Both the position numbers and the translations under genes were made by a program. The notes beneath the pieces are model-generated. The model had not been told where the DNA came from. It saw only the letters and a program-made list of their open reading frames with translations, and searched no databases. 64,000 nt of DNA. It comes from Dehalococcoidia bacterium. Lineage in GTDB: Bacteria > Chloroflexota > Dehalococcoidia > DSTF01 > JACRBR01. Within the stretch, counting starts at the first letter, position 1, and every line of letters starts with the position of its first letter. Location: assembly GCA_015478665.1 (NCBI GenBank), contig JADMII010000005.1, positions 1 through 64,000 of the forward strand, given 5' to 3'. Of the stretch, positions 1-14,102 are shown piece by piece.

Positions 1-559
1 TGGCCGCTTGCTAGCCAGTTGACCGATTACTTACACCACGTCCTGGGACTCTACTATCTTCTCCCCCAACGCCGCTACGCCAACTCGGTTCCGCTATGCT
101 TGGTGCGTTCCGCCGGATTGCCAGTAGAGGTCGGGCGAGCCAATTCGCCCGCCAATCACTACTAACTTCACAAAAACAAGTAACCCATAGTAACGGCCTC
201 GCCTCCCCCAGCCACGCTTCGCGTGTGGCCGCGCTGCCCAATAACGCCGTCCGGGCTGGCTCTGCCGGCCGGATGCCCAGGTTCGGCTTTGGTGATCTCT
301 GGAGGCAAGGACGCGTACGGACTATGGGCCGGATGATTTCCTCGGTCTCCGTTTTCACCAAGCTTCTCTGGCGCTCGATTGGGCGTTCGCGGACGAGGCC
401 CATAAGCGGTTCGGCTGAGTGCGCGTTTTTCGGGGGAGGCGAGAGCGCGACAGCCCGCCTCCGCCCGCACCAGCCCTAAACTCGAATCGCGTGCGCGCCG
501 CCCGCCGGCGCCGCGGAGCCGTGTTCCTATAAGGATCCTAGATTATTGGCGCCGATGGG
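1..559. other. no supported gene at left edge
   Basis: Open frames exist on both strands here (for example 96-479 on plus and 11-403 on minus), but none has a convincing ribosome binding site, a recognisable domain or a natural protein-like composition. The frames overlap one another and are rich in Arg, Pro and Ser, as expected of non-coding GC-rich DNA. The stretch may hold remnants of mobile DNA, since it borders an accessory region, but nothing in it can be named. Confidence 0.5.
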
Positions 560-1285
560 TCAGCGGGCAATCGTCAGATGCTGCACCGAGGTAGGTGTCA
601 TGGGAATCGAATTCTGTAGACCGTCCGCGTAGAGGTCTAGCTCTCCCACCGATGTGACGCCATTAGGTAGCGAGAACGTCAAGCTGAAGCCTCGCGACGC
701 GCCAGGCGCAAGATCAACGCTTCCGACTCCAACGCCGCCCGATCCTGCGGGAGAGATGGGCGCCACCGCCACGCGAAGCACATCACCTCGCGCGTCCTTC
801 GCTATCGCACAGGCTTTTGGAGTCGAAACACCCTCTGCACTACTATTGCTCGCCACGGCGTTGACCGTCACCAGACCGCCGGTTTGTGATGCTCTCGCGC
901 CAGACAGCGTGAGACTCCCACGGAGCACGTGGCCAAAAGTAGGTGCTGGATCTCCCGCCAGCCTCGCCCGTCCGGCCGCAAGTAGCAGCGTGGGATCGTT
1001 GGACTGCGCCTCGAAAAACTCGGATGACCCACTTTGTAGTGATCTGAGGCATGGAATAACGGTGGCCGACTGGATGACATTGCCACTTTTATCGAGGAAG
1101 TCCACCTGCACCTCATGCGCCAAGATATCCACGCCAGTGTAGTTATGAATCTCCCCAGCGAATAAAGCGTTCGTATCTAGTCGCGAACTTGATGCGTGCT
1201 GGACGACGCATCCGCCGAATACGAACGCGCCACCAACAATCAGTAGCACCCATTTAACCACGCGAGTTCCCTGCCTCTGGGTCAC
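560..1285 (-). CDS. small secreted lipoprotein, FxLYD-like
   Basis: A 241-residue protein starting at a GTG with an AAGGGAG ribosome binding site 8 bases upstream. The N-terminus has two basic residues, a hydrophobic segment (about residues 12-25) and a lipobox ending FGGC, so it should be lipidated and surface-anchored. The first half after the lipobox (about 40-100) resembles FxLYD-type beta-sandwich modules, which describe an extracytoplasmic protein without enzymatic residues; this match is by eye and tentative. The rest is Ser/Gly/Val-rich and probably another beta domain. It is downstream of, and co-directional with, the broken protease and the small secreted protein, in a lower-GC patch that looks transferred. 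Role unknown, possibly adhesion or stress. Confidence 0.65.
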   Translation of the reverse strand: MTQRQGTRVVKWVLLIVGGAFVFGGCVVQHASSSRLDTNALFAGEIHNYTGVDILAHEVQVDFLDKSGNVIQSATVIPCLRSLQSGSSEFFEAQSNDPTLLLAAGRARLAGDPAPTFGHVLRGSLTLSGARASQTGGLVTVNAVASNSSAEGVSTPKACAIAKDARGDVLRVAVAPISPAGSGGVGVGSVDLAPGASRGFSLTFSLPNGVTSVGELDLYADGLQNSIPMTPTSVQHLTIAR

Positions 1286-1366
1286 CGCATTCGCTCCCTT
1301 GCCACCTAATCACGCTCCGAGCTCGCATGCGAGGGCAACGATCCCACTCCTCGATTGGTGTTTCCG

Positions 1367-2663
1367 TCATGGATTCACGGTGAGGCTGTCATAGCTCGAT
1401 CCGTTCTGGCTCCACCAGTAAATCACACCCTCTCCGGATGGATTGGTCGTCTTGTAGCACTCGCGCCAAACAAACGCATTGAGTGGGAGATCTGGTCCTC
1501 CTTGGGGGTTGGAGCATTGAGGGTACAGCGTCAGACTGGTGTTCGTGATCCTCGTGTCCGGAATATTCTGACTGCCGCTCGCATTAAAGATGATCGCCTG
1601 CTGACTCGAACTGGCCGAGAACAGCGTCCACGCCATGGCCACGTCGCCGTTGGATGTCGTCCGCCTACCCATTCTGACCCCAACGCTACCGGAGGCGCCA
1701 CCCGCGTTCGCCTTTAAGTTAATGCAGGCGGACGTACCGGCCATGTTCGAGCCGATGAGCGGGGAGTCTGCGTAGGCCACGTCAGAATTAACCGGCGTAA
1801 CCGCCTGCGTGCTCGGGTATGCTCCGTTGCAGATTTGCCTTATGTAGGAAAAGCTTCCGACGTTCGGAACCTTGAACACCACCCGCAATGTTGAAGTGTT
1901 TGCGCCTTGATACAACCAGATGATCTGGGGCGTAGGTGGGGAACCGAAACTCCGGGAGGTTGCCGACTTCACGTTGTTGAAGTCGAAACTCTGTGGGACG
2001 GCTGGGTTGATTGGACCACTGTTGGTGCAAACGCCATCCACCTGATTCTGCGTGTTGACATCGAGTGCGTTCATTGACGTGAGTACGTTCAGGTTACAGA
2101 CGAAACTCGGCTCGATGTACTGTTCCCCCAACCCGAGTGAGTGACCCAGTTCGTGATCTGCAACCGCTCGTAGCCCGTTGTCGGTATAGGTCAGCGTCGT
2201 CTGACCGCTCTTCGGCGCGGAGTTGATCGTGATTATCTCCCCGCTGGCGAAGGCCGCATTAGTGAAACTCGTGTCAGCGTTGCAACCCAGCCAGCTTCCT
2301 GGGCAGGTGGACGAGTTCGACCAGACGACGTTTATCGGCTCCGAACCGTCGCAGTTGCCGAAGAACTCACCAAGGCCTCGCGCCCAGAACGCTTGATAAC
2401 CTAGAGCGTTGTTCCAGTCGCCCATAGCTGTGCGTACGTCGGCTTTCACGTTCGATGGTAACGTCCCGATGCATGTGTTAACCGGACGCAGGGTCCCTGG
2501 CTACGAGCCATTTATCACCAACGAGCTGTTGAAATAAATAGAGAACGGTTTGAAGTCGAGGTACACCGTGTGGTTAGCATTCGCCGGCTGCGCGAGCCCG
2601 ACCCCAACCGTCAACCGCAACGACCGCCATTATCGCCAAGCGACTGAAGCTCGACTTTATCAT
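1367..2663 (-). pseudogene. secreted matrixin-like zinc metalloprotease, broken
   Basis: The body holds the zinc site HELGHSLGLGEQY, matching the HExxHxxGxxH/D-type matrixin consensus, in a frame open from 2500 down to 1367. The original start is the ATG at 2663, which overlaps the stop of the upstream gene (ATGA) and follows a GGGGGAGG ribosome binding site. It encodes a good signal peptide start (MIKSSFSRLAIMAVVA). Near 2612 one extra base shifts the frame; removing it restores a textbook signal peptide ending QPANA and continuing NHTVYLDFKPFSIYF. A TAG at 2501-2503 then interrupts otherwise continuous protein-like sequence. Matrixins are secreted endopeptidases with a catalytic Glu between the two zinc His residues, and these are intact here. 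As written the gene cannot give a secreted enzyme. Alternatively the two lesions are assembly errors. Confidence 0.75.
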
Positions 2664-3097
2664 GGTGCCTCCCCCGCGGTGCCGCTGGTCAGCGCACCGC
2701 TTGACTGCGCGTCCCCCTCGGCCGCAATGATTGTGTGTCGCAGGCGTTCCTTGGTCACCGGATCGATGTCGAACTGATTGCCCGTACAAACATCGCTAAC
2801 AATGTCGAACGCCTGTGGTACATACGAATCAACGGCTCCTGGGCCGATGACATGAACGAGTGTGCCGGCCGGTGCGACAACTTCAGTGGCACATGGCGTT
2901 GGAAGAGGCGGCGGTGGAGGCTCCTCTCTGGGAAGCGGAGGGAAGGTCGCCGTAGGCAGAGGAGCGACCGAAGTCGAGCCGGTCGACGTGGGCGGCGCGG
3001 TCGCCGATGTCGTGTCTGATGCCGTCAGCCTGGGAAGGAGACTTATGCTAAGGATCATAACAGCCGCGACGAATCCGATGGGAACAAGTTTCATCAT
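2660..3097 (-). CDS. small secreted or membrane-anchored protein, unknown
   Basis: A 145-residue protein with an excellent AAGGAGG site three bases before an ATGATG start. Residues 4-24 are a single hydrophobic segment (signal peptide or anchor). Residues 28-75 are a low-complexity Thr/Ser/Pro linker with a run of prolines, followed by an about 70-residue tail with two Cys (in PTPCATE and DVCTGNQ) that could form a disulfide. No domain is recognised. Its stop overlaps the ATG of the matrixin-like protease by four bases, so the two were translationally coupled; a propeptide, inhibitor or surface partner of the protease is possible but only inferred. Confidence 0.6.
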   Translation of the reverse strand: MMKLVPIGFVAAVMILSISLLPRLTASDTTSATAPPTSTGSTSVAPLPTATFPPLPREEPPPPPLPTPCATEVVAPAGTLVHVIGPGAVDSYVPQAFDIVSDVCTGNQFDIDPVTKERLRHTIIAAEGDAQSSGALTSGTAGEAP

Positions 3098-3181
3098 TCG
3101 CCTCCTTGGCTCACCGAACCCTCGACACTACAGCCATTCTCCGAAGTGAATTGCATTAGGGCATCCGTCAGATTCGCACGC

Positions 3182-3589
3182 TCAGTTGCGCCTGCGGTGA
3201 TCGGTCTGATCAAAGATTTGGTTATTCTCGAACAGCTGTTGACACGACTTAGTGCAACACTCCGAGTGCTCGCGCGCCCATTTGGACAACAGGGTGTGCG
3301 TGGGTGTGAGAGATGTCAGGCCAAACACTCGATGTTCGAGTTCCGCGAGATGGCGCCGTATCGTGGCGGAGCTGATACCTAGCCCAAGCGCGATCTCATC
3401 GACCGTGTACCCGAATTCGCAGGCACTCAAGACCTGCAGTTGACGCAGGGTCAGTCGCAACATGTGTTGCTGTCGTACCGCTTGGAGCTCGCGCGGAGGC
3501 ATCGCCATCGTCCGATCCTCGTAGCCCAGCACTTCAGCGTCTTGACGTCCCAACCGGTCGGAAGGCTTGCCGGCGATTTTAGTTGACAT
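3182..3589 (-). CDS. LuxR/NarL-type helix-turn-helix regulator
   Basis: A 135-residue protein if the ATG at 3589 is used; the frame is open further upstream to 3784, but that part is unlike protein. A GerE/LuxR-type DNA-binding domain occupies about residues 45-95: LTLRQLQVLSACEFGYTVDE followed by IALGLGISSATIRRHLAEL, with the usual Thr-x-Glu replaced by Thr-x-Arg-Gln near the first helix. There is no receiver or sensor domain, so it may be a short stand-alone regulator. It is co-directional with, and upstream of, the secreted protein and protease genes and may control them. Start choice is uncertain because no strong ribosome binding site is visible. Confidence 0.6.
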   Translation of the reverse strand: MSTKIAGKPSDRLGRQDAEVLGYEDRTMAMPPRELQAVRQQHMLRLTLRQLQVLSACEFGYTVDEIALGLGISSATIRRHLAELEHRVFGLTSLTPTHTLLSKWAREHSECCTKSCQQLFENNQIFDQTDHRRRN

Positions 3590-3654
3590 CGTGCTCGGTG
3601 TCAAATCCATCCCGAACCGATGTTGGTGTTCCGAGATTCTGTCCTCACTAACTG

Positions 3655-4073
3655 TTCTGTGATTTTGTCCTCTCATGAACGAGGACATCATCATGACGGC
3701 GAAGGAACAGGTGCGGGTCCAGGTGCTCGCGGGGCGTGAAGGTGAAGACTGGCCGGAGAGAACCCGCGAAAAGTACGCGGACATGCGCGTGGGTGCTGCC
3801 GTCGAAGGAACACGGAGTTCTGCTTACAGGTCAGGTAGGGCGTTCGGCGTCGCCGCAGCAGACAGGCGCACAGGTGCGCGACCGGAGCGGATGGAATCTC
3901 TCGTGGACTCCCAGCGAAGTGACAAGCGCATCGGCGCACTCCCGCAATTTCCGGCGCGGCTCTCGGACTCACTCCGGTACGCGAAGTACTACAACAATCA
4001 AGCGGATGATGCCTGGCACGTCGCCGAGAACGTCAAATCGGCACTCAAGAAGTTGGCTTACAGACTTCGCTGA
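3655..4073 (+). pseudogene. possible insertion-sequence end with transposase N-terminal scrap
   Basis: An inverted repeat TGTCCTC/GAGGACA (3666-3672 and 3681-3687) sits directly before a frame starting MNEDIIMTAKEQVRVQVLAG. Openings of this kind, and GTCCTC-type ends, occur in helix-turn-helix transposases of ISNCY-like elements. After about 20 residues the expected helix-turn-helix is absent and the frame runs into unrelated low-complexity sequence ending at 4073. I read this as the left end of an IS truncated shortly after its start. The family call is from memory and weak; a short unrelated ORF is the alternative. Confidence 0.3.
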
Positions 4074-4170
4074 GTGCGGCGAGCGCAGTCCAATGGCGGC
4101 GGGTGCGGCACCACGAGTCCGCGGCGGATCAGCGAACAGTAGCGCACCGAGAGCCCGGACGCCCGCATGA

Positions 4171-5073
4171 TGGCGCTCAGCGGCAGCGCTTGGAGCGCGT
4201 GCCGGCGACGACCGCACGGAGAAGAAGGCGCCGTCTCCGCCGAAGCCGTTTTACGGGGACGGCGCTGCTGGAGACCCGCATCCGGCGCCGTTCGATGGCG
4301 AGCTGCTCCCCGACGGGCACAAGGAAGGCGGGCGGGACTACCCGATCGAGCTGGCGCCTTACGCCGATCTCGAGGCACGGGCAACGCCGATGGCGCGAGA
4401 GCTTGTCAGTGAACTGACGCTCATGCCGGTAGACGACGCGCCGCAGCCGGCAGAGCGTGGCGGCACACTCTCCGTTCGCCAGTATCTGCGGGAACGCGAG
4501 CGTCCGTTCCTGATACGCGACGACGAGCGACTTGCGCCGCCGCGCCTGGCCGTTCGCGTCGTCATCGACCACTCGACGAGCATGAACCACGCAACGTCGG
4601 GTCGGTCGCGCATTCAGCACGCCGCCGAAGCCGCGATGATGCTGCACCTGGCGTGCGTGGAGCTGGAGATCGACCACGGCATCAGCGTGATGCCGCAGCA
4701 GCTGACCCTCGCAAACCTAACGACGGGAGAGAGAGGCAAGGCGCTCATCGCCGGAGTCGTGCCTGCCAAGACCGGTTACGAGAACCTCGCCATCGCGATC
4801 GAGCGCCAAAGCTCAGAGCTGCTATCCGTTGTCGCCGACCTCAGGGTGCTGTTCGTGGTGCACGACGGCTATCCGAACGACGCGGAGAAGGCGCAACGGC
4901 TGTGTCTGGCACTTCGCGCCAAGGTCGAAGTGATCGGTGTGTTGATCGACCCGGACGAATCGACGGCGAAGGCGATGCGCGAGATCTTCGGCACCGACCG
5001 CCTCGTTGCTTGTGCTGCCAGTAACCTGCCGATCAAACTCGCCGCGATGCTCGAATCGATTCGCGGCGTGTGA
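4171..5073 (+). pseudogene. von Willebrand A domain protein lacking its N-terminus
   Basis: The frame is open from 4171 to 5073 and protein-like from about 4201, but no ATG, GTG or TTG is available until the ATG at 4390, inside apparently conserved sequence. The MIDAS motif is clear: VVIDHSTSMN (D-x-S-x-S) at about residues 58-67 of the 4390 product, followed by a Rossmann-like fold with FVVHDGYPNDAEKA in the position of the TD loop. The layout resembles CobT/NorD-type VWA proteins that partner MoxR-like AAA ATPases; no such ATPase is present here. The 227-residue product from 4390 may still be expressed. I favour a gene decapitated by the rearrangement at 3.7-4.1 kb. Confidence 0.55.
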
Positions 5074-5116
5074 ACCACGAGGGGTGCCGTCGACATGACC
5101 ACCCCCTCAACTCATG

Positions 5117-5145
5117 TTGACGCGGCATGAGATAATGGTTGTAAC
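5117..5145 (+). promoter_or_regulatory. sigma-70-type promoter for parA, near-leaderless
   Basis: TTGACG (5117-5122), a 17-base spacer and TGTAAC (5140-5145) give a good -35/-10 pair. Transcription would begin about 5152, only a few bases before the chosen parA ATG at 5156, and no ribosome binding site is visible. This suggests a leaderless or nearly leaderless message. Start site and strength are inferred. Confidence 0.5.
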
Positions 5146-5155
5146 ACCAACATCT

Positions 5156-5908
5156 ATGACCCGCATCATCGCCATCGCCAACCAGAAAGGCGGCGTCGGC
5201 AAGACCACGACCACGATCAATCTCGGAGCGGCCCTTTCCAGGGAGAAGCAGCGCGTGCTGCTCGTCGACCTCGACCCGCAGGCCGCGCTCTCGGGAAGCT
5301 TGGGAATCAGTGACCCCGAACTAACGGCGACGATCTACCGCGTTCTGCTATCAGAGATTCTCGCCGACGAGGCGATCCGTGCTACTCGGTCTGGTCCTGA
5401 CGTCATCACCGCGAACATCGATCTCTCGGCCGCGGAGGTCGAGCTCGCCGCGCAGATGGGGCGGGAGCACTTTCTCGCCGACGCCCTCAATCCACTTTCC
5501 AACAACTATGACTTCATCCTGCTCGATCTGCCGCCCTCGCTCGGGCTGCTGACCGTCAACGCGCTCGTCGCAGCGACGGAGGTGCTGATCCCGGTGCAGT
5601 GTGAGTTTCTGGCCATGCGCGCACTCACCCTGCTGCTCGCCACGATTCACAAGGTTCAGACGAAACTGAACCCGGCGCTGAGTGTCCTCGGGATTCTGCC
5701 GACCATGTTCGACGCACGGACCGTCCACGCGCAGGAGGTTGTCGAGGAGCTGCGCAACTCGTTCGGCCTGCCGGTTTTTTCCCACGTCGTTCGCACTAGC
5801 GTCCGCTTCAAGGAGCCGCCGGCTGCTGGCGTGTCGATCTTCGACTACGCGCCGTCGCACGATGGCGCTGCCGCCTACGCCGAGCTCGCGAAGGAGTTGC
5901 TGCGATGA
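5156..5908 (+). CDS. parA: ParA/Soj-family partition ATPase
   Basis: A 250-residue P-loop ATPase. The deviant Walker A KGGVGKTT is at residues 11-18, the DLDPQA motif at 38-43, and a Walker B-like [10 protein letters not shown] lies mid-protein. Family members bind ATP, dimerise on nucleoid DNA and move replicons or elements through a small centromere-binding partner. The start at 5156 gives the standard [10 protein letters not shown] opening and follows the predicted promoter; an upstream in-frame start at 5114 adds nonconserved residues. The stop overlaps the next gene by four bases, so the two are coupled. Its place beside an integrase suggests it stabilises an integrative element or former plasmid. 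Confidence 0.92.
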
Positions 5909-6369
5909 GTTCCCGGATTTCTATCAAGGGCAAGGGCGCAGAGCTTTTCTTCGGCGGCGCCGAGGTGCTGGAAAGCCCATCATCTCGAGACGAAACCAGT
6001 GCAAGAAAGACTGACAGCGTGCTTGCTGGCAAGACTGACAGCAAGAAAGCAAGCATGCCCGAAAGCAAGACTGCAAGACATACCGAGGTCGCACCAGGTG
6101 AGCCACGGTCCAGTGCCGTACTCAGAACACTTCGCGAGGCGCTGCTCGAGGAACATCCTGTCAACAACAGCTTTCGCTACTCGCAAGAATCGCTGGACGC
6201 GGTACGCGACATCGCGTACGAACTCGAGGTCATGAGGAATCTCAAGACGTCCCGTAACGACATCATGCGCCTCGGGCTGGCATGGATCATCGACGATTAC
6301 CGCGCCAAGGGCGCCGATAGCGTCCTGGTAGCAGTGCTGAAGGAAGAGAGAGGCAGGGCAAGCCGATGA
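5905..6369 (+). CDS. ParA partner protein, putative centromere binder
   Basis: 154 residues, translated from an ATGA overlap with parA. The first 70 residues are a flexible Lys/Ser/Thr-rich tail with near-repeats around [18 protein letters not shown]. The C-terminal 80 residues are predicted helical ([39 protein letters not shown]), the size and arrangement seen in ribbon-helix-helix or helix-turn-helix centromere binders such as ParG or type Ib ParB. Basic N-terminal tails in that group stimulate the ParA ATPase. Sequence similarity is not certain; the assignment rests on coupling and architecture. Confidence 0.55.
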
Positions 6370-6818
6370 AGGAGATGACCTTCGTGCCAAAAAGCGAGCT
6401 CAACGTCCGCGAGATCTTCGCTCAGCGCGCGGAGCGCCTCGGTTACCGCATCGTCGAGAGCCGCGCTGCGTTTCCCGATTCCCTGCTGGAACACGAGGGC
6501 GACCGCATCTTCGCCGAGGCGGAGTTCCGCACCTCCAATTTCCTCCGCCATCGCCATGACCTTGCGCGCTGCGATCTCATCATCGTCTGGGAGCACGACC
6601 TTCCGTCGATGCCAATGCCGGTGCTCGAACTCAAGAATGAGGCGCTGCACACGACGAAGCGGCGGGGTAGACCTCCGGGTTCGACAGCATCGACGACAAA
6701 CCAATCGCATCAACGAAGGGCCTTCTGGGCCCGCAAAACGGCCGCCAAAGCGTCCAACGACGTCGACGCTACTGGCAGTACCTCAGGGCGCGCTATCTCG
6801 TCTCCTGAGCCCGATTAG
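6366..6818 (+). CDS. conserved small protein of partition cassette, nuclease-like motif
   Basis: 150 residues, again overlapping the upstream stop by four bases. Residues about 1-100 look folded, with a core FAEAEFRTSNFLRHRHD then CDLIIVWEHD and a later VLELKNE. This spacing of acidic residues and the E-x-K-like ending recalls small PD-(D/E)xK nuclease folds, but the catalytic set cannot be assigned confidently. The last 50 residues are Ser/Thr/Arg-rich and probably disordered. It is the third gene of the parA operon. It could be a nuclease, or a structural relative used in element maintenance. Confidence 0.45.
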   Translation: MKEMTFVPKSELNVREIFAQRAERLGYRIVESRAAFPDSLLEHEGDRIFAEAEFRTSNFLRHRHDLARCDLIIVWEHDLPSMPMPVLELKNEALHTTKRRGRPPGSTASTTNQSHQRRAFWARKTAAKASNDVDATGSTSGRAISSPEPD

Positions 6819-6959
6819 CGGTCGACGCCGTCCGCCTGATGTTCGGTCGCCTAGGCCGCGGAGAGTTGACTGATGGGCAATTCCGATTCGGCCTCTCGAA
6901 GTGCAATCCTCAACCAATGAAGACGCAATGCCGTTCGCCGACGGCAACAGGGCAATGCG

Positions 6960-7184
6960 ATGTCAGATAACCCCCTCCTCACCGTCCCAGAAGTCGCCAA
7001 ACGCCTGCGTCTATCACCCAACAAGGTCTACGAGCTCCTACACGCCGGGCAGATCCCTCACATTCGCCCCGGGCGTAAGTTTCTGATCCCCACCCAGGCA
7101 TTGGAGCGGTGGATCGAGACGGCCGCGCAGATCGAAGATACGAATACGGACGTGATTCCGCTGTCGCGCCGGCTCGTGGGCTGA
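6960..7184 (+). CDS. excisionase-family helix-turn-helix protein
   Basis: 74 residues with a MerR-like winged helix typical of the excisionase/AlpA-like HTH_17 family: LLTVPEVAKRLRLSPNKVYE then LLHAGQIPHIRPGRKFLIP at about residues 5-47. Such proteins bend DNA at attachment sites and bias integrases towards excision, or act as repressors. It lies 53 bases before the integrase start on the same strand, the usual xis-int arrangement. The short C-terminal tail has no recognised feature. Confidence 0.8.
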   Translation: MSDNPLLTVPEVAKRLRLSPNKVYELLHAGQIPHIRPGRKFLIPTQALERWIETAAQIEDTNTDVIPLSRRLVG

Positions 7185-7211
7185 CAATCTGGACGACAAG
7201 CACGGTATGAT
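7181..7211 (+). promoter_or_regulatory. possible integrase promoter
   Basis: CTGACA (7181-7186) and TATGAT (7206-7211) are separated by 19 bases, slightly long for sigma-70. The -10 lies 26 bases before the integrase ATG at 7238. The -35 overlaps the end of the excisionase gene. Weak evidence, based on motif match only. Confidence 0.35.
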
Positions 7212-7237
7212 GGCGCTCCCCGCGGAGCTAGATCGCG

Positions 7238-8393
7238 ATGAAACAGGGTTACGTCCGCCAACGATCGAAGGGCACCTGGACCGTCGTCGTCAATCTCGTC
7301 CGTGACCCGGTTAACCGGGAAGCGGCGACAGCTGACGCGCACCGTTCGAGGTAACCGTGCCGAAGCCGAAGCCGAGTGCATCAAGCTTTTGCATGAACGC
7401 AACTCCGGCCTGCACCAGGCACCCAACAAGATCACCGTCGCCGAGTATCTCAAGCACTGGCTCGCGGCGTACGCAGAGCCCAACACAGCACCGCGGACGT
7501 ACGAGCGCTACGAGGCGCTTGTCCGGCGGAACCTCGTCCCGGCACTCGGGCGCTATAACCTCATGCGACTCCGCCCGACGCACATCCAGTCGTACTACGC
7601 AGCGGCGCTGAAGTCCGGGCGCGCCGATGGTCGCGGCGGGCTCAGCGCGCAGACCGTCGTCCATCTCCAGCGCGTGTTTCGCGAAGCGCTGCAGCAAGCT
7701 GTCAAGTGGCAGATCCTGCCGCGTAACCCGGCGGATGCAGTCACGCCGCCTCGCCCCGTCCGCCGCGAGATGCGTGTGCTTGATCCCAAGGAGATTGCGA
7801 GGCTGATGGACGCCTGCGACGACGATGACCTGCGCACGCTTATCTTCGTGGCGTTGTCAACCGGGCTCCGCGAAGGCGAGCTGCTCGCACTGCGCTGGTC
7901 CGACGTCGACCTGAAGGAGAGTCACCTCCAGGTCACGCGAACGCTGCACTACCTCACGAACAAAGGCCTGCAGTTCGGCGAGCCGAAGACGCGGCGCAGC
8001 CGGCGACGCGTCTCGCTCTCGAAGGAGACGGCGCGTGTGCTTGCGATGCATCGCACTCGCCAACTCGAGCGGCGCCTGCTGCTCGGAAGCGTTTACGTGG
8101 ACAACGACCTCATCTTCGCGACCGAGATAGGCGATCCGGTGAAGCCGTACAGCATCTCCCCTCGGTTCAAGCGAGTAGTCCGGAAGGCGAAGCTGGGACA
8201 GATGCGCTTCCACGACCTGCGACACACGAGCGCGTCCCTGCTGCTCGCCGCCGGCATCCATCCGAAGGTCGTGTCCGAACGGCTAGGACACTCGACGGTC
8301 AACCTCACGCTCGACACGTACAGTCATGTGCTCCCTGGACTGCAGGAGCAGGCGGCGCAGTCAATGGACGCATACCTTCCACGGGCTCGATAG
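7238..8393 (+). pseudogene. tyrosine recombinase/integrase with an N-terminal frameshift
   Basis: A phage/ICE-type tyrosine integrase. From 7302 onward there are the SAM-like core-binding domain (ITVAEYLKHWLAAYAEPN onward) and the catalytic domain: Arg in STGLREGE, HDLRHTSAS, LGHSTVNLTLDTYSH with the nucleophilic Tyr. The AP2-like arm-binding N-terminus starts at the ATG at 7238 (MKQGYVRQRSKGTWTVVVNL, then RDPV) in another frame. The continuation TGKRRQLTRTV sits one base out at about 7315, within the perfect palindrome CCCGGTTAACCGGG (7306-7319). One extra A restores the standard RDPVTGKRRQ. Either the element is locked by mutation, the base is an error, or frameshifting is used. A GTG at 7302 could give a protein without the arm-binding domain. 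Confidence 0.85.
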
Positions 8394-8407
8394 GCACGCT
8401 TACTGAA

Positions 8408-10150
8408 TTAGCGGGTCCGGGAGACGTCCTCAACGACAGTGATAAGCGGTTCGAGCAGCGCCGAGTCCGCTCTCGACGTGTCCCGCGTCAGGATCACGCG
8501 CCGCTTGGCTCGCGTAATGGCAACATAGAACAGACGGCGTGCCTCCTCCCAATTCTGAGCGCCTCCGCGCCTCTTGTAAGGAACGATGCCATCGTTCAAG
8601 AACGGCAAGATCACTACTTCGTACTCAAGCCCCTTCGCCGTGAAGCTCGTCATGATCTTCACCTTCTGTTCCGCCCGGGATGCCGCCGCTTCGAGGCGCG
8701 ACCATTCCATGAGCACCAGTTGGGCCAACTCCACAGAATTCGAGGGCTCATGTTCCGCGACGGCTTGAGTCAACATGCGGTTGAGAAGTCGTACCTGTTC
8801 GGCATCACGCAAGGGAGCACGTACGCTCCCGCAATTCAGCGCGTCCAACAACGCATCCATGAGTGAGCGCGGGCGGGAACCGATCCCGGCATCAACTGCG
8901 GCGCGGGCGGACGCGATGGGGAAGATCCGTTCGCCAGCTAGTTGATTCGCCGTACGGATCTCGTCGGAGAGGGCGGTACCACCGGCCATTGCGTTGAGGC
9001 AACCACGCACGGCGCGGACTGTTGGTATTTTCGTGAAGTCGTCCATTCCGAGAACGACGTGTGGAATCTCGTTGGCCTCAAGCGTCGGTCGAAGATTCTT
9101 GAACATGAATCGATGCGGCGCCAGCACGACGATCTCGCCGGCCGGCGTCCCTTGATCGAGTTCCTCGATGATGTAACCAACGATCAACTCGGCCTCGTCC
9201 TCAGCGCCGTTCGCGCCGTCGAGAATGACCTCGCCTTGAATGTCCGTGCGCCTCGATGCCATCAACTCATCACGCCTCCGCGCATTCACAGCAATCACCG
9301 CGTTCGCTGCATCAACGACGGCGGGCGGACAGCGGTAGTTGCCTCGCAACATGCGTTCTTCCGCGCCGAACCGCTCCACGAACTCGGCGATGTTCTCTGG
9401 CCGGGCGTCGCGCCATGCATAGATCATCTGATCATCATCGGCGACCCCGAACACCGTGCATCGCTCGCCGACAAGCTCCCCGATCAGGTCAAGCTGCAAC
9501 TGGTTCGTGTCCTGCAATTCGTCTACGAAGACGTAGCGGTACGCATCGCGCAGGACCGCTCGCACTCGCGGCTGCTCGCGAAGTAGCTGGAGGGTGTGAA
9601 TGATCAGATCATCGAAGTCGCGGAGCCGGCGCTCAACGAGCGCCTCTTCGTATGCTTGTGCGAGTGCCCTGAGCGTCTCGGCGGGAATACCAGCCCGTCC
9701 CTCTCGCCGGCCCTTGAAGTTGCTGATCGCCGTCCCGACATTCTGGGCTTTGGCATTGCTTCCGTGCTCATCAAGCAGGCGTTGAATGAACTCGTCTCGC
9801 TCAGGCGGTACGAGCATGCCGGCGTTACGGGGCCAGCCGATGAGATGTCCCCAACGGCCGAGCAGCGATGCTCCCAGTTGATGGAAGTTGGCGACCGTGA
9901 GTCGATGGCCCGGCGCACAGAGCGTCTTGTCCATGAGCCGCTTCCGCATCTCACGCGCCGCTTCGACGCTGAACGTCAGGCAGCAGATCCGGAAGCGTTC
10001 GTCAGGCGTCGAGCGCAGCCGGTAAGCGACCGTGTTGGTAAGTAGGTGCGTCTTACCGCTTCCCGGCGGTGCGAGCACGAGCATCGGACGATCGACTTGC
10101 GAGGCGATCTCCAACTGCTCCTCATCGAGGCAGGCGCGGAGGATCTCCAT
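8408..10150 (-). CDS. gajB: Gabija GajB-like UvrD/PcrA-family helicase
   Basis: A 580-residue superfamily 1A helicase starting at ATG 10150, one base after the stop of the OLD nuclease gene. The frame is open upstream, but that part only mirrors gajA. Walker A is APPGSGKTH (27-35) and Walker B DELQD (210-214). Next come GVADDDQMIYAW, the motif IV region GNYRCPPAVV, motif V TSFTAKGLEYEVVILPFLN and motif VI EARRLFYVAITRAKRR. In Gabija, GajB senses DNA ends or unwound DNA and stimulates GajA. It is a little longer than the best-known GajB (about 500 residues). The pair converges with the integrase, whose stop is 14 bases away. A general repair helicase is unlikely given the paired context. Confidence 0.82.
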   Translation of the reverse strand: MEILRACLDEEQLEIASQVDRPMLVLAPPGSGKTHLLTNTVAYRLRSTPDERFRICCLTFSVEAAREMRKRLMDKTLCAPGHRLTVANFHQLGASLLGRWGHLIGWPRNAGMLVPPERDEFIQRLLDEHGSNAKAQNVGTAISNFKGRREGRAGIPAETLRALAQAYEEALVERRLRDFDDLIIHTLQLLREQPRVRAVLRDAYRYVFVDELQDTNQLQLDLIGELVGERCTVFGVADDDQMIYAWRDARPENIAEFVERFGAEERMLRGNYRCPPAVVDAANAVIAVNARRRDELMASRRTDIQGEVILDGANGAEDEAELIVGYIIEELDQGTPAGEIVVLAPHRFMFKNLRPTLEANEIPHVVLGMDDFTKIPTVRAVRGCLNAMAGGTALSDEIRTANQLAGERIFPIASARAAVDAGIGSRPRSLMDALLDALNCGSVRAPLRDAEQVRLLNRMLTQAVAEHEPSNSVELAQLVLMEWSRLEAAASRAEQKVKIMTSFTAKGLEYEVVILPFLNDGIVPYKRRGGAQNWEEARRLFYVAITRAKRRVILTRDTSRADSALLEPLITVVEDVSRTR

Positions 10151-10151
10151 G

Positions 10152-11918
10152 TCACGCCTCCGGCTCGCGTGCTTCGCGCATGCCCGCCTCGGCCAGCGCC
10201 GCCGCGAACTCCAGCACCTCGCGTACCGCCGGAGGCACGGGCAGGCCGAGCACACTGAACTGCCGCGCCGTCTCGGATGCGAGTTCGGGCTTCCGGATGT
10301 GGCGCTGACGAACATACCCGCGAACCGTTGCGCCTCCGTCGTCTGCCAGCCCTTGCGCAGTTCGGCGCTCGCGGTATTCCTGCAAGTTGCCGTCGCCGTA
10401 CAAGATGTTCGCGGCGGCCCCGAACGCTGGATACCCGCCCTCCGAGACGAGGTACGCCTCGAAGTCGCCGTTCGGCCACCAGAAGATCCCAGCCTGACGC
10501 AATTGCGCTTCGTCCGGGTTGTCGATATCGATGCCGGCCGGCAGGCTGCCAGCATCGCGGAGCGACCGGAGCAATGCACCGACTGCGAGATCGCGATCGC
10601 ATACAGCAGCATGCGGGAGATCGAGACACCCACTGCTCAACAACCGGACGAATGGCCGGAACATCTGCCCCGCGACACCGACGATGCTCACACCGAGCCG
10701 ATCCAGGTCGATGCCCAATTGCGCCGCGAACTCCGGGAAAGCGCCCTGCTCACTGCCGCCTTCCACGAGCAACGCTGAGCGGCCGAAGAGGAACTCGCTC
10801 GTGCTGCCGCGCACGGCCCGCACGAGGTGCGCCCTATCGCCCTCATCGAATGACCCGGACGGCACGGCGCGGAAGGTCGAGAGGCGTCCGCTCTGGCGCA
10901 CCAGGATCGCGTTCGTGGGATCGAAGCGGTCAGCGACAACGGGCGAGTGCGTCGTGTAGATGATCTGCGTCCCATCCTCGGACAGCAGGTTGAGCAGCGA
11001 GCGGACGGCATGCGGCGAGAGATGGTTCTCCGGTTCCTCCAAGCCGAGAGCCAGCACCATGCCGCCCTGCGTCTCGACGTAGGCCCGGAAGAGTCCGAAC
11101 ATTGCCAACGTCTGTACGCCGGTGGAGTACTGGTTCAACGAGATCGGATCCTCTTCGCCCGGTGAGGTGAGGTACACCGACGTGCGGCGGGCGACGGCGC
11201 GATAGTCGAGCGGTGTTGCTCGCATCTCGGCGGAAACCGCATCATCTTCGCCGTACAGCACGGCGCTGACGTACGACCGAACACGGTCGCCCATCTCCTC
11301 CAGCCGTTCGGCTCCCAACACTGCCTCCGCGAGTTGTCGGCCTGCTTCCGTCGCGATCTCCTTCAACTGCTCGGGATCGCTGGCCTGCCGCAGTAAATCC
11401 GTCAGCCGCGCCCACATGCCGCCGCGCTCATCGAGTTCGCGTCGCGCATCACGAATCGCCGGCAGGTAGAAGAAGTTCACCGTGTCGTGCACGTGGGAAT
11501 CGAGACGACCATCGGTCTCGCCGTCGAGCTTGTAGTAGTTCGCGTAGCTCCGGAAGATGCCGTCCTGTTCGAAGCCGGCATCCGCTGTCACGAGCACAAG
11601 CTCGCTGCCGTCGGCGTGGAAGTCGATGTGCTCATCGAAGAGGGCGTGCTCGTCTTCGGTGAACGTGTCGCCCGTCGACGGCCGGATCTCGATCTCGACG
11701 GACAGGCGCTCGCCGTCGGCAAGGCCACGGGCCAGATCGTCCGGGTCGAACCCGTACCCGGCACCGCGCCGGCCGACGCCGAACACCTTGTCGATGGCCT
11801 CGAGCACGGAGGTCTTGCCCGCGTTGTTGCTGCCGATCAGAAGCGGGCGCTCCGTCAGTGTGATCTCGGCGTCCGCGAAGCACCGATAATTGATGAGTCG
11901 CACTCGGTGGATTCTCAC
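10152..11918 (-). CDS. gajA: Gabija GajA-like OLD-family ATPase/TOPRIM nuclease
   Basis: 588 residues, the usual GajA size. The N-terminal ABC/SMC-type ATPase has Walker A GSNNAGKTS (29-37), signature-like QYSTGVQTLA (263-272), Walker B LGLEEPE (291-297) and the H-loop TTHSP with His324. A TOPRIM domain follows: LLVEGGSE (383-390) with Glu386 and Glu390, and VCDRD (439-443) with Asp441 and Asp443. In known Gabija systems this protein nicks DNA when nucleotide levels fall during infection and forms a complex with GajB. Class 2 OLD proteins are defined by a neighbouring UvrD-like helicase, exactly as here. It is the first gene of the pair and stops 124 bases from the tRNA-Leu 3' end. Confidence 0.85.
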   Translation of the reverse strand: MRIHRVRLINYRCFADAEITLTERPLLIGSNNAGKTSVLEAIDKVFGVGRRGAGYGFDPDDLARGLADGERLSVEIEIRPSTGDTFTEDEHALFDEHIDFHADGSELVLVTADAGFEQDGIFRSYANYYKLDGETDGRLDSHVHDTVNFFYLPAIRDARRELDERGGMWARLTDLLRQASDPEQLKEIATEAGRQLAEAVLGAERLEEMGDRVRSYVSAVLYGEDDAVSAEMRATPLDYRAVARRTSVYLTSPGEEDPISLNQYSTGVQTLAMFGLFRAYVETQGGMVLALGLEEPENHLSPHAVRSLLNLLSEDGTQIIYTTHSPVVADRFDPTNAILVRQSGRLSTFRAVPSGSFDEGDRAHLVRAVRGSTSEFLFGRSALLVEGGSEQGAFPEFAAQLGIDLDRLGVSIVGVAGQMFRPFVRLLSSGCLDLPHAAVCDRDLAVGALLRSLRDAGSLPAGIDIDNPDEAQLRQAGIFWWPNGDFEAYLVSEGGYPAFGAAANILYGDGNLQEYRERRTAQGLADDGGATVRGYVRQRHIRKPELASETARQFSVLGLPVPPAVREVLEFAAALAEAGMREAREPEA

Positions 11919-12042
11919 GACTGCCTTCCTGAGTCAGCCGTTCGCGCGGCCTAGCTCGGCCGTAGGTGAACAAAAGGTGAGCAAATGCTAATCCGTGCAG
12001 CACTTCACCTCGCGGCTGCGAGCGACATCAGATTCAGAATCT

Positions 12043-12130
<88 letters not shown>

Positions 12131-12159
12131 CCGGCGCCAGTGTAGCGGCTCCGGCGCCG

Positions 12160-12299
12160 GCGCAATGGCGCTCCGAATGGAGTGCGGCGCAGGGGCGTGA
12201 ACCCACGCGGCGCGTCCGGCGCGCCCGAGGCGCAATGGCGCTCCGGATGCGGAGTGCGGCGCAGGGGCCTCGCCGGCCGCAGCCCCTTCGCCGTTCGCG
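12160..12299. repeat. 70-bp tandem repeat, type A (two units)
   Basis: The sequence GCGCAATGGCGCTCCG followed closely by GAGTGCGGCGCAGGGGC starts at 12160 and again at 12230, a spacing of exactly 70 bases. The stretches between diverge more. It adjoins the type B array, which has the same period, so both are probably parts of one expanded intergenic array upstream of the tRNA. Confidence 0.75.
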
Positions 12300-12303
12300 G
12301 CGG

Positions 12304-12627
12304 TCCGGATGCGGCGACCGGTCGACAGCGCACGGCTGGCGACCGGTGTACGTCCGGCGCGCGACGAGCATCATCCGGATGCAGCGACCGGTCGACAGCG
12401 CACGGCTGGCGACCGGTGTACGTCCGGCGCGCGACGAGCGTCATCCGGATGCGGCGACCGGTCGACAGCGCACGGCTGGCGACCGGTGTACGTCCGGCGC
12501 GCGACGAGCATCGTCGGGGATGCGACGACCGGTCGACAGCGCACGGCTGGCGACCGGTGTACGTCCGGCGCGCGCGACCAGCATCGTCAGGGATGCGACG
12601 ACCGGTCGACAGCGCACGGCTGGCGAT
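12304..12627. repeat. 70-bp tandem repeat array, type B (about 4.6 units)
   Basis: GACCGGTCGACAGCGCACGG begins at 12316, 12386, 12456, 12527 and 12600, so periods are 70, 70, 71 and 73. The first four units carry an inverted repeat ACCGGTCG, 15 bases, CGACCGGT, able to form an 8-bp stem-loop; the last copy is degenerate. Frames through the array give long Arg-rich products on both strands, but these are not genes. It fills the gap between the 3' end of the yceI gene and the tRNA-Leu. The regular period without spacer variation rules out a CRISPR array. Confidence 0.9.
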
Positions 12628-12798
12628 CCGGGCTCCGGCGCCGGGACGCACCCCTCTGTGGTGGGCGGCTACCCATTTTGATGCGCCACTGACGCGAGAG
12701 AGTGCCGGGGCGCATTGGCGCGGCCGCACGGCAAGGACGCCGCCGTGCGCACGCATCGGCACGGCACCGACGGCCGCCGGGGCGATCGTCCTCCGGCG

Positions 12799-13347
12799 CT
12801 ATTCCTCCAGCACCGCGGCGACCCGCAGCTCGATGCGCACGCGGTCGCCGACGAGGACGCCGCCGCTTTCGATGACGCCGTTCCAGTTCAGGCCGAAGTC
12901 CTTTCGCTGGATCGACGTCGTCGCCGTGAACGCCGCCCGCTGCTTGCCGTAGGCGTCCCGGATCTGCCCCTCATACTCGGTGTCGAGCACGACCTCACGC
13001 GTCTCGCCGCGCATCGTCAGCTCGCCCGTCACCCGCCAGCGGGCGTCGTCCACCTTCTCGACACGCGTGCTGCGGAAGGCGATCTCCGCGTAGTTCGGCG
13101 CGTCGAAGAAGTCCGCCGAGCGCAGGTGCTCGTCGCGCATCTCGACGCCAGTATCGATACTCGAGGCATCGATGGTGGCGACCACCGACGAGCGCTCCGG
13201 CTGCGCCTCATCGATCTGCACCTGTCCGCCAAGCGTCCGGAAGCGCCCCTTCACGGTGGAGATCATCATGGCCTTGACCGAGAACTCCGCGCTTGAGTGG
13301 GCGTTGTCGATGGTCCACGTGCTGATGCCCGCTGCTGCTGTCGTCAT
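12799..13347 (-). CDS. YceI-family lipid-binding-like protein
   Basis: 182 residues from the ATG at 13347, preceded by a strong GAGAGGAAGAG purine-rich site; a start at 13386 would add a basic stretch. The sequence opens STWTIDNAHSSAEFSVKAMM, then has KGRFRTLGGQVQID, the DEHLRSADFFDAPNYAEIAF segment and the closing VGDRVRIELRVAA typical of YceI. Members form a lipocalin-like beta-barrel binding isoprenoid-type ligands. No signal peptide is visible, so this copy is probably cytoplasmic. It is transcribed divergently from an HxlR regulator, and a promoter with an overlapping operator-like site lies between them. Confidence 0.92.
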   Translation of the reverse strand: MTTAAAGISTWTIDNAHSSAEFSVKAMMISTVKGRFRTLGGQVQIDEAQPERSSVVATIDASSIDTGVEMRDEHLRSADFFDAPNYAEIAFRSTRVEKVDDARWRVTGELTMRGETREVVLDTEYEGQIRDAYGKQRAAFTATTSIQRKDFGLNWNGVIESGGVLVGDRVRIELRVAAVLEE

Positions 13348-13426
13348 CGCTCTTCCTCTCTTCCTTCCGATGAGGCCTTGCCGCATCCGTCATGCGCCCG
13401 GCGGCGCTGCTTCTCTTCTACTAGCG

Positions 13427-13455
13427 ACTATACTTAACTTAGGTCACGGAGTCAA
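13427..13455 (-). promoter_or_regulatory. promoter of the YceI gene
   Basis: On the minus strand TTGACT (13455-13450), a 17-base spacer and TATAGT (13432-13427) are near consensus. The start of transcription would be near 13420, leaving a leader of about 70 bases with a good ribosome binding site. Confidence 0.65.
13432..13444. promoter_or_regulatory. operator-like palindrome in YceI promoter spacer
   Basis: ACTTAACTTAGGT is a 13-base imperfect palindrome (ACTTAA-C-TTAGGT) between the -35 and -10 of the YceI promoter. A protein bound here would block polymerase. The divergent HxlR regulator is the natural candidate; this is inference. Confidence 0.45.
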
Positions 13456-13513
13456 GCCCGCCGCCGGCGGCGACGCGGCGACTTCGCCTCACCTTTGGTA
13501 AGCTGTAAGGGAC

Positions 13514-13936
13514 ATGGCTGCGCGAACAACGGACATGGAACCGTTCTGCCCCTACTTCCACCACGCGGTCGAGCTCATCGGCCGGCGCTGGAGCGGCGCC
13601 ATTCTGCGCGCCCTCCGCACCGGCGTCTCGCGCTTCAGCGAGCTCACGGCGACGGTGCCCGGACTCAGCGACCGCATGCTCTCCGAGCGCCTGAAGGAGC
13701 TCGAAGCGGAGGGCATCGTCGAACGGCGGGTGATCGCCGAGACACCGGTGCGCATCGACTATCTGCTGACGGAGAAGGGGCGCGCGCTGAGCGGCGTGAT
13801 GGACGCGATCAGCGCCTGGGCGACGCGCTGGCACGACGATGGGCCGTCGCAGGCGCACGACTGCGCCGAGTCGGCGGCAGCGACGGGACGCCGGCGCGGT
13901 CGCAGTCGTCAGCCTGATTCGTACGACGCGCGCTGA
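13514..13936 (+). CDS. HxlR-family transcriptional regulator
   Basis: 140 residues with a winged-helix HxlR domain over about residues 12-105: PFCPYFHHAVELIGRRWSGA, then RFSELTATVPGLSDRMLSER and the wing VIAETPVRIDYLLTEKGRAL. A single Cys at position 12, just before the first helix, corresponds to the redox-sensing Cys of YodB/HypR-like members. The last 30 residues are basic and low in complexity. The gene diverges from yceI; together they look like an oxidant- or electrophile-responsive pair, although no inducer can be read from the sequence. Confidence 0.88.
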   Translation: MAARTTDMEPFCPYFHHAVELIGRRWSGAILRALRTGVSRFSELTATVPGLSDRMLSERLKELEAEGIVERRVIAETPVRIDYLLTEKGRALSGVMDAISAWATRWHDDGPSQAHDCAESAAATGRRRGRSRQPDSYDAR

Positions 13937-14102
13937 CCTCGCGCCCGGCAGTTTCGCCGCGGCCCCGCGTACTGCGGACCCGACGGCAGCCACGTGAGAT
14001 CGAGCCCGGCGCCGGCCGTGTCAGCCCCCACCGCATCGCCATGCCCACGCGCCGCCTGCGCGCGTCTGCGGCATCTGCAGATCCGGCATCGTGTGCACGC
14101 CA

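What the first reader, a model, noticed from the sequence alone, without database searches (positions are those of the whole stretch)
8408..11918. Gabija-type anti-phage pair on a tRNA-Leu island
Seen: an OLD ATPase/TOPRIM protein followed one base later by a UvrD/PcrA-like helicase, with intact ATPase and TOPRIM residues. Known: this adjacency defines class 2 OLD systems and Gabija. Inferred: a working defence system carried as cargo, placed between the integrase and the tRNA. The helicase is about 80 residues longer than the best studied GajB, so it may have an added domain.
Basis: partly seen in the sequence, partly recalled or inferred. Interest (0 to 1): 0.6.

Follow-up and report, generated by a model that had tools for sequence, protein, structure and literature searches.

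The report
Gabija defence pair on tRNA-Leu island
The two genes are a distant but complete-looking Gabija-type anti-phage defence pair, carried in a cargo slot of a mobile island that in a related bacterium holds a different known defence system, so the finding is real but belongs to a known kind.

Summary
Window 10152-11918 (-) encodes a 588-aa OLD protein (ABC ATPase + Toprim). One base on, 8408-10150 (-) encodes a 580-aa UvrD-like helicase. ATPase, Toprim and helicase motifs are intact, and the best PADLOC matches are GajA and GajB. RecF, PcrA and AddA models fall far below their cut-offs. Nine of ten relatives in the phylum sample (11 of 12 with two class-level hits) have the helicase next door, so the class 2 OLD / Gabija filing stands. 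The host is a Chloroflexota genome.

The 'added domain' is not supported: the extra 86 residues over Bacillus GajB are spread along a UvrD-like protein.

A genome of another genus in the family (G003) has the same excisionase-integrase module (90% DNA identity) at the same tRNA-Leu. Between the integrase stop and a conserved 77-nt att-side arm it carries IetAS, a different anti-phage system. Two other relatives have the tRNA unoccupied. The slot carries interchangeable defence operons. Here the island's far end is truncated or off-contig and the integrase N-terminus is out of frame. Phage resistance was not tested. New member of a known kind, moderate-low interest.

The parts
10152..11918 (-). 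OLD-family nuclease, GajA-type (588 aa): ABC ATPase (about 1-355), Toprim (about 375-588)
   Evidence: PADLOC GajA PDLC00070 1e-49, PDLC00067 covers 1-523; Pfam AAA_15, AAA_21, OLD-like_TOPRIM above cut-off; model pLDDT 75, TsOLD Z 21.3 and GajA Z 19.8 over full length
8408..10150 (-). UvrD/PcrA-like SF1 helicase, GajB-type (580 aa)
   Evidence: PADLOC GajB PDLC00114 1.1e-78, PDLC00117 covers 9-558 of 580; Pfam UvrD-helicase and UvrD_C; fold Z 38 to UvrD/PcrA/Rep
12043..12130 (-). tRNA-Leu (CAA), integration target; transcribed towards the cargo
   Evidence: ARAGORN and Rfam
12042..12099 (.). presumed att core: 3' 58 nt of the tRNA, which recurs as partial copies in related genomes
   Evidence: 58-nt partial copies in G003:C9 and at a contig end in G002:C93
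11965..12041 (.). conserved island arm next to the tRNA, with two tandem GGTGARCAAA repeats (11965-11974, 11976-11985): probable integrase or excisionase arm sites (inferred)
   Evidence: shared by three occupied sites, absent from two unoccupied ones; repeats expected 0.04 by chance, 2 found
8381..11964 (.). exchangeable cargo slot: OLD+helicase here, IetA+IetS in G003
   Evidence: DNA match to G003 stops at 8380 and resumes at 11965; IetA 3e-124, IetS 7e-230
7302..8393 (+). tyrosine integrase; its first ~21 codons (from 7238) are in another frame here, while the G003 copy is open over 384 aa
   Evidence: Pfam Phage_integrase 7.7e-28; 95.6% identical to G003 copy
6960..7184 (+). excisionase-like HTH protein
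   Evidence: NCBIfam TIGR01764 above cut-off; 97% identical in G003
6366..6818 (+). conserved island backbone ORF of unknown function
   Evidence: 95% identical in G003; no Pfam match
5905..6369 (+). island backbone ORF downstream of ParA (ParB-like role inferred from position only)
   Evidence: 61% identical in G003; no Pfam match
5114..5908 (+). ParA-family ATPase
   Evidence: Pfam AAA_31 6.7e-58; 75% identical in G003
4197..5073 (+). 3' remnant of a 512-aa backbone gene; homology to G003 begins at 4197

Best explanation
A Gabija-type (class 2 OLD + UvrD-like helicase) anti-phage operon carried in the cargo slot of an integrative island at tRNA-Leu. Shown: gene order, intact catalytic residues, profile and fold membership, conserved adjacency, and that the same integrase module carries IetAS in the same slot in another genus of the family. 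Inferred from studied Gabija systems: the two proteins form a GajA4-GajB4 assembly. The OLD ATPase, and probably the helicase, sense nucleotide state and DNA structure. The Toprim site then cuts or holds invading phage DNA (linear ends not engaged by the host's AddAB/AdnAB-type enzyme, or after nucleotide depletion), blocking circularisation or replication. The operon reads away from the tRNA and is convergent with the integrase; it was most likely acquired by exchange of the whole operon between the integrase stop and the att arm.
For: GajA/GajB best matches in PADLOC; a profile of the family finds the class 2 OLD nuclease domains of Burkholderia and Xanthomonas (1.8e-60, 7e-60) and full-length Bacillus GajA (3.8e-44) in the PDB; residues E379, E383, D432, D434, K541 of GajA (PMC10822852, PMC10781630) correspond to E386, E390, D441, D443, K543 (K541 by conservation, as the PDB alignment to GajA stops before it); predicted fold matches OLD/GajA over the full length whereas most SMC/Rad50/RecF rows match only residues 1 to about 380; helicase adjacent in 11 of 12 relatives; closest relatives (40% OLD, 46% helicase) keep both genes and catalytic residues, and one sits beside a DruE-like gene; IetAS in the same slot; host genome has a large PDDEXK_1 gene pair of AddAB/AdnAB type.
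Against: Both proteins are distant from tested Gabija systems (PADLOC scores 168 and 263 bits; phmmer to Bacillus GajA only 24.7 bits). The helicase scores almost as well with the PcrA model as with GajB models (236 against 263 bits) and its fold ranks UvrD/PcrA first. No activity was tested. Only three members of this branch were found.
Confidence: 0.82

Rival explanations
1. A class 2 OLD-helicase pair used for host or island DNA maintenance (repair, recombination or replication of the mobile island) and not for phage defence.
For: The helicase keeps the Q-motif region and UvrD-like subdomain lengths, unlike Bacillus GajB, for which no helicase activity was detected; an OLD ATPase of another class works in the archaeal cell cycle (PMC12796447, abstract).
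Against: The pair is in the exchangeable slot and not the conserved backbone of the island; the alternative occupant is IetAS; NCBIfam repair models fall far below cut-off; a relative lies beside a Druantia-type gene.
Confidence: 0.12
2. A decayed or silent defence cargo: the genes are intact but the island is stranded (truncated backbone, integrase N-terminus out of frame) and the operon is not expressed or no longer functional.
For: Backbone homology stops inside a gene at 4197; 1-nt length difference in the integrase; no sigma-70-like promoter found near the operon; no second att copy in the assembly.
Against: Both ORFs are open with catalytic residues, ribosome sites and GC3 bias intact; the contig starts at window base 1, so the far end may simply be missing; the promoter scan covers one promoter type only.
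Confidence: 0.15
3. Helicase with an added (new) domain.
For: 580 aa against 494 aa in Bacillus GajB.
Against: The offset is already 48 residues at motif II (187 against 139), the rest is spread over the 2B-like part and the C-terminal core; the profile aligns end to end with PcrA and UvrD, which are longer still; PADLOC GajB models in the table run from 382 to 725 aa.
Confidence: 0.05

Closest known systems
Gabija (GajA-GajB), Bacillus cereus VD045
   Same: OLD ABC-ATPase + Toprim protein followed by UvrD-like SF1 helicase; Toprim E/DxD/K site; PADLOC profiles
   Different: About 15% identity by fold alignment of the OLD protein; helicase longer by 86 residues and with a Q-motif region that Bacillus GajB lacks (PMC10822852); complex and activity untested
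Class 2 OLD nucleases of Burkholderia pseudomallei and Xanthomonas campestris (BpOLD, XccOLD)
   Same: C-terminal Toprim region with helical insert matched over its whole length by the family profile
   Different: Direct identity is low; the window protein belongs to a separate three-member Chloroflexota branch
IetAS defence system (AAA ATPase + subtilase)
   Same: Occupies the same slot of the same integrase module at tRNA-Leu in genome G003
   Different: Unrelated proteins; not present in the window
Genomic islands with hotspots of defence cargo (e.g. Pseudomonas islands, PMC12629846, found by search and known here from its abstract only)
   Same: Islands that carry exchangeable defence genes
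   Different: Different phylum and backbone; only three occupied examples seen here

Membership tests
Gabija / class 2 OLD system | OLD protein: N-terminal ABC ATPase with intact Walker A/B, C-terminal Toprim | tested here: met
   Pfam AAA_15, AAA_21, OLD-like_TOPRIM above cut-offs; invariant motifs
Gabija / class 2 OLD system | Toprim catalytic residues (GajA E379, E383, D432, D434, K541) | tested here: met
   Correspond to E386, E390, D441, D443 by alignment; K543 is the invariant lysine and its pairing with K541 is inferred
Gabija / class 2 OLD system | Class 2 Toprim with helical insert, matching BpOLD/XccOLD C-terminal region | tested here: met
   Family profile 1.8e-60 and 7e-60 over the whole domain; single-sequence phmmer 1.4e-12 to XccOLD over 84 residues
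Gabija / class 2 OLD system | Adjacent UvrD/PcrA/Rep-like helicase, conserved in relatives | tested here: met
   1 nt apart; adjacent in 11 of 12 relatives
Gabija / class 2 OLD system | Profile match to GajA and GajB models | tested here: met
   PADLOC 1e-49 and 1.1e-78, both best hits
Gabija / class 2 OLD system | GajA4-GajB4 complex | not testable with these tools
   Only single chains can be folded here
Gabija / class 2 OLD system | Protection against phages | not testable with these tools
   Needs plaque assays
RecF repair ATPase | NCBIfam RecF model at cut-off | tested here: not met
   30.4 bits against 172
PcrA / Rep / UvrD housekeeping helicase | NCBIfam equivalog cut-off | tested here: not met
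   pcrA 236 against 911 bits; rep 232 against 951; uvrD 197 against 1144
AddAB / RecBCD | NCBIfam AddA or RecB cut-off | tested here: not met
   addA 90 against 708; recB 91 against 696
Integrative island at tRNA-Leu | Integrase, excisionase, tRNA 3'-end att core, unoccupied sites in relatives | tested here: met
   tRNA unoccupied in G001 and G005
Integrative island at tRNA-Leu | Second att copy bounding the island in this genome | tested here: inconclusive
   None in the assembly, but contig C1 begins at window base 1 and backbone homology breaks at 4197

The most novel reading that the evidence does not exclude
The island has a dedicated exchange slot, bounded exactly by the integrase stop codon and the 77-nt att arm, into which whole defence operons are swapped, always reading away from the tRNA, so that a new operon is expressed at once by read-through from the tRNA-Leu promoter or from a promoter in the arm.
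Probability: 0.15. Interest if true: 0.5.

Novelty: new member of a known kind. Interest (0 to 1): 0.35.

Why it matters
It adds a deep, small Chloroflexota branch to Gabija, with a UvrD-like helicase that appears to keep parts lost in the best-studied GajB, so it could show whether the helicase of some Gabija systems really unwinds DNA. The two-occupant slot (OLD-helicase here, IetAS in another genus with the same integrase) gives direct comparative evidence that the pair is defence cargo, and a clean case of whole-operon exchange.

Tried and rejected
Single-sequence scans of genome contigs and viral contigs found no close relative; the alignment-based scan found two, both named Chloroflexi, the same records as G260 and G206. 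Phage records gave only P2 Old-type and distant hits; plasmids many, the best rows at 24-29% identity. Search for a second att copy: none. The ABC-transporter gene that flanks the unoccupied tRNA site in G001 has no close copy in this genome, so the left border could not be fixed that way. Integrase relatives in the class, apart from the G003 copy, are at most 52% identical and were not followed for cargo. Retron or DRT filing rejected: no RNA family besides the tRNA in 1-14000; the RTasHel profile scores below the best GajB models. GajB chains are not among the 50 rows, which does not exclude them. The HD-domain protein in the G002 slot matches the dGTPase profile only weakly (25 bits), so it is not counted as a defence system.

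Full report
Observation. The OLD protein (10152-11918, minus, 588 aa, GTG) and the helicase (8408-10150, minus, 580 aa, ATG) are present as described, with one base between the stop and the next start and a GGAGG ribosome site inside the OLD 3' end. The longer 741-codon ORF listed mechanically is an over-extension: the closest relatives start at the equivalent inner ATG. Catalytic motifs are intact in both proteins.

Identity. PADLOC's best matches are GajA (1e-49) and GajB (1.1e-78), with long coverage by PDLC00067 and PDLC00117. Pfam gives ABC-ATPase, OLD-like Toprim and UvrD domains above cut-off. A profile of 11 relatives finds in the PDB first the class 2 OLD domains of Burkholderia and Xanthomonas, then class 1 OLD, then full-length GajA. 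Published GajA active-site residues correspond to E386, E390, D441, D443 and probably K543. The predicted OLD fold (pLDDT 75) aligns over nearly its full length with TsOLD (Z 21.3) and GajA (Z 19.8), whereas SMC, Rad50 and RecF align with the ATPase half.

Relatives. In 400 genomes of the phylum (drawn evenly) ten others have an OLD match at E <= 1e-15; nine of the ten, and both of two further class-level hits, have the helicase next door on the same strand. The two closest (40% OLD, 46% helicase; records named Chloroflexi) lie in other contexts, one of them beside a Druantia DruE-like gene. Only three members of this branch were found.

Helicase length. The helicase is 86 residues longer than Bacillus GajB, but the family profile aligns end to end with PcrA and UvrD, which are longer, and the model matches UvrD/PcrA with Z 38. 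The offset to GajB is 48 at motif II. [quoted passage not shown] the window helicase has a Q-motif region (L8-Q12) and a PcrA-like segment between motifs V and VI. So the Bacillus protein is the short form; no added domain is needed. The 2B-like stretch 369-492 is predicted with low confidence, so its fold is open. Whether this helicase unwinds DNA is untested.

Island. The backbone at 4197-8380 (remnant of a 512-aa gene, ParA-type ATPase, two small ORFs, excisionase, integrase) matches genome G003, of another genus in the same family, at 84% DNA identity; the integrases are 95.6% identical. G003 has it at the same tRNA-Leu(CAA) but in a different chromosomal setting (glycine-cleavage genes, read from the ORFs). 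Homology stops at the end of the integrase gene and resumes 77 nt before the tRNA. In between, G003 holds IetA (3e-124) and IetS (7e-230). A third genome, G002, has the same 77-nt arm followed by an HD-domain protein, seen from one side only because the contig ends. G001 and G005 have the tRNA without the arm or cargo. The 3' 58 nt of the tRNA recurs as partial copies in G003 and G002, as expected of an att core. The arm carries two tandem GGTGARCAAA repeats, read as probable recombinase sites by inference.

State of the island here. No second att copy is in the assembly. The window starts at the first base of its contig, in a 53-bp repeat shared with two other contig ends. Backbone homology breaks inside a gene at 4197. 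The integrase's first codons lie in another frame than the rest, while the G003 copy is open. Either the island is stranded or the draft assembly has errors; the data do not decide.

Mechanism. By analogy with studied Gabija systems: a 4:4 ring (PMC10781630, PMC10822852) in which the OLD Toprim site acts on phage DNA, controlled by nucleotide levels (PMC8136825, PMC10822852) or licensed by absence of RecBCD on linear DNA (PMC12407980, a preprint). The host has a large gene pair with PDDEXK_1 domains of AddAB/AdnAB type, as the latter model needs. All mechanism steps are inferred; only anatomy and context are shown.

Verdict. Gabija-type pair: well supported. Working defence: likely, from slot exchange with IetAS and intact sites, but untested. 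New member of a known kind.

Noticed in passing
L097:12653-16128 (genome G003): IetA-IetS pair in the slot that the OLD-helicase pair fills in the window, beside a 95.6% identical integrase.
   Followed up: yes
L094:8865-10148 (genome G002): HD-domain phosphohydrolase-like protein (HD, HD_assoc_2) after the same 77-nt arm and a degenerate tRNA-Leu; a possible third cargo.
   Followed up: partly
window 12304-12662: Five tandem copies of a 70-73 nt GC-rich unit between the tRNA-Leu and the YceI-like gene.
   Followed up: no
window 3-55: 53-bp sequence shared exactly with the ends of contigs C57 and C41 of the same genome; probably the end of a repeated mobile element at which the assembly broke.
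   Followed up: partly
window 1367-2449: Protein with a HELGHSLGLGEQ zinc-metalloprotease-like motif and no Pfam match, in the low-GC stretch left of the island backbone.
   Followed up: no
L098 and L099 (G003:C9:1321-27886): Five partial copies of the tRNA-Leu 3' end spread over 26 kb of one contig, which may mark repeated integrations or remnants.
   Followed up: partly
L109:7911-13351 (genome G003): The rest of the island backbone there: 512-aa gene, MoxR-like AAA ATPase, PD-(D/E)XK nuclease and DUF5131 gene, missing from the window.
   Followed up: partly
window 7238-7302: Reading-frame break near the start of the integrase; an intact copy exists in G003.
   Followed up: yes
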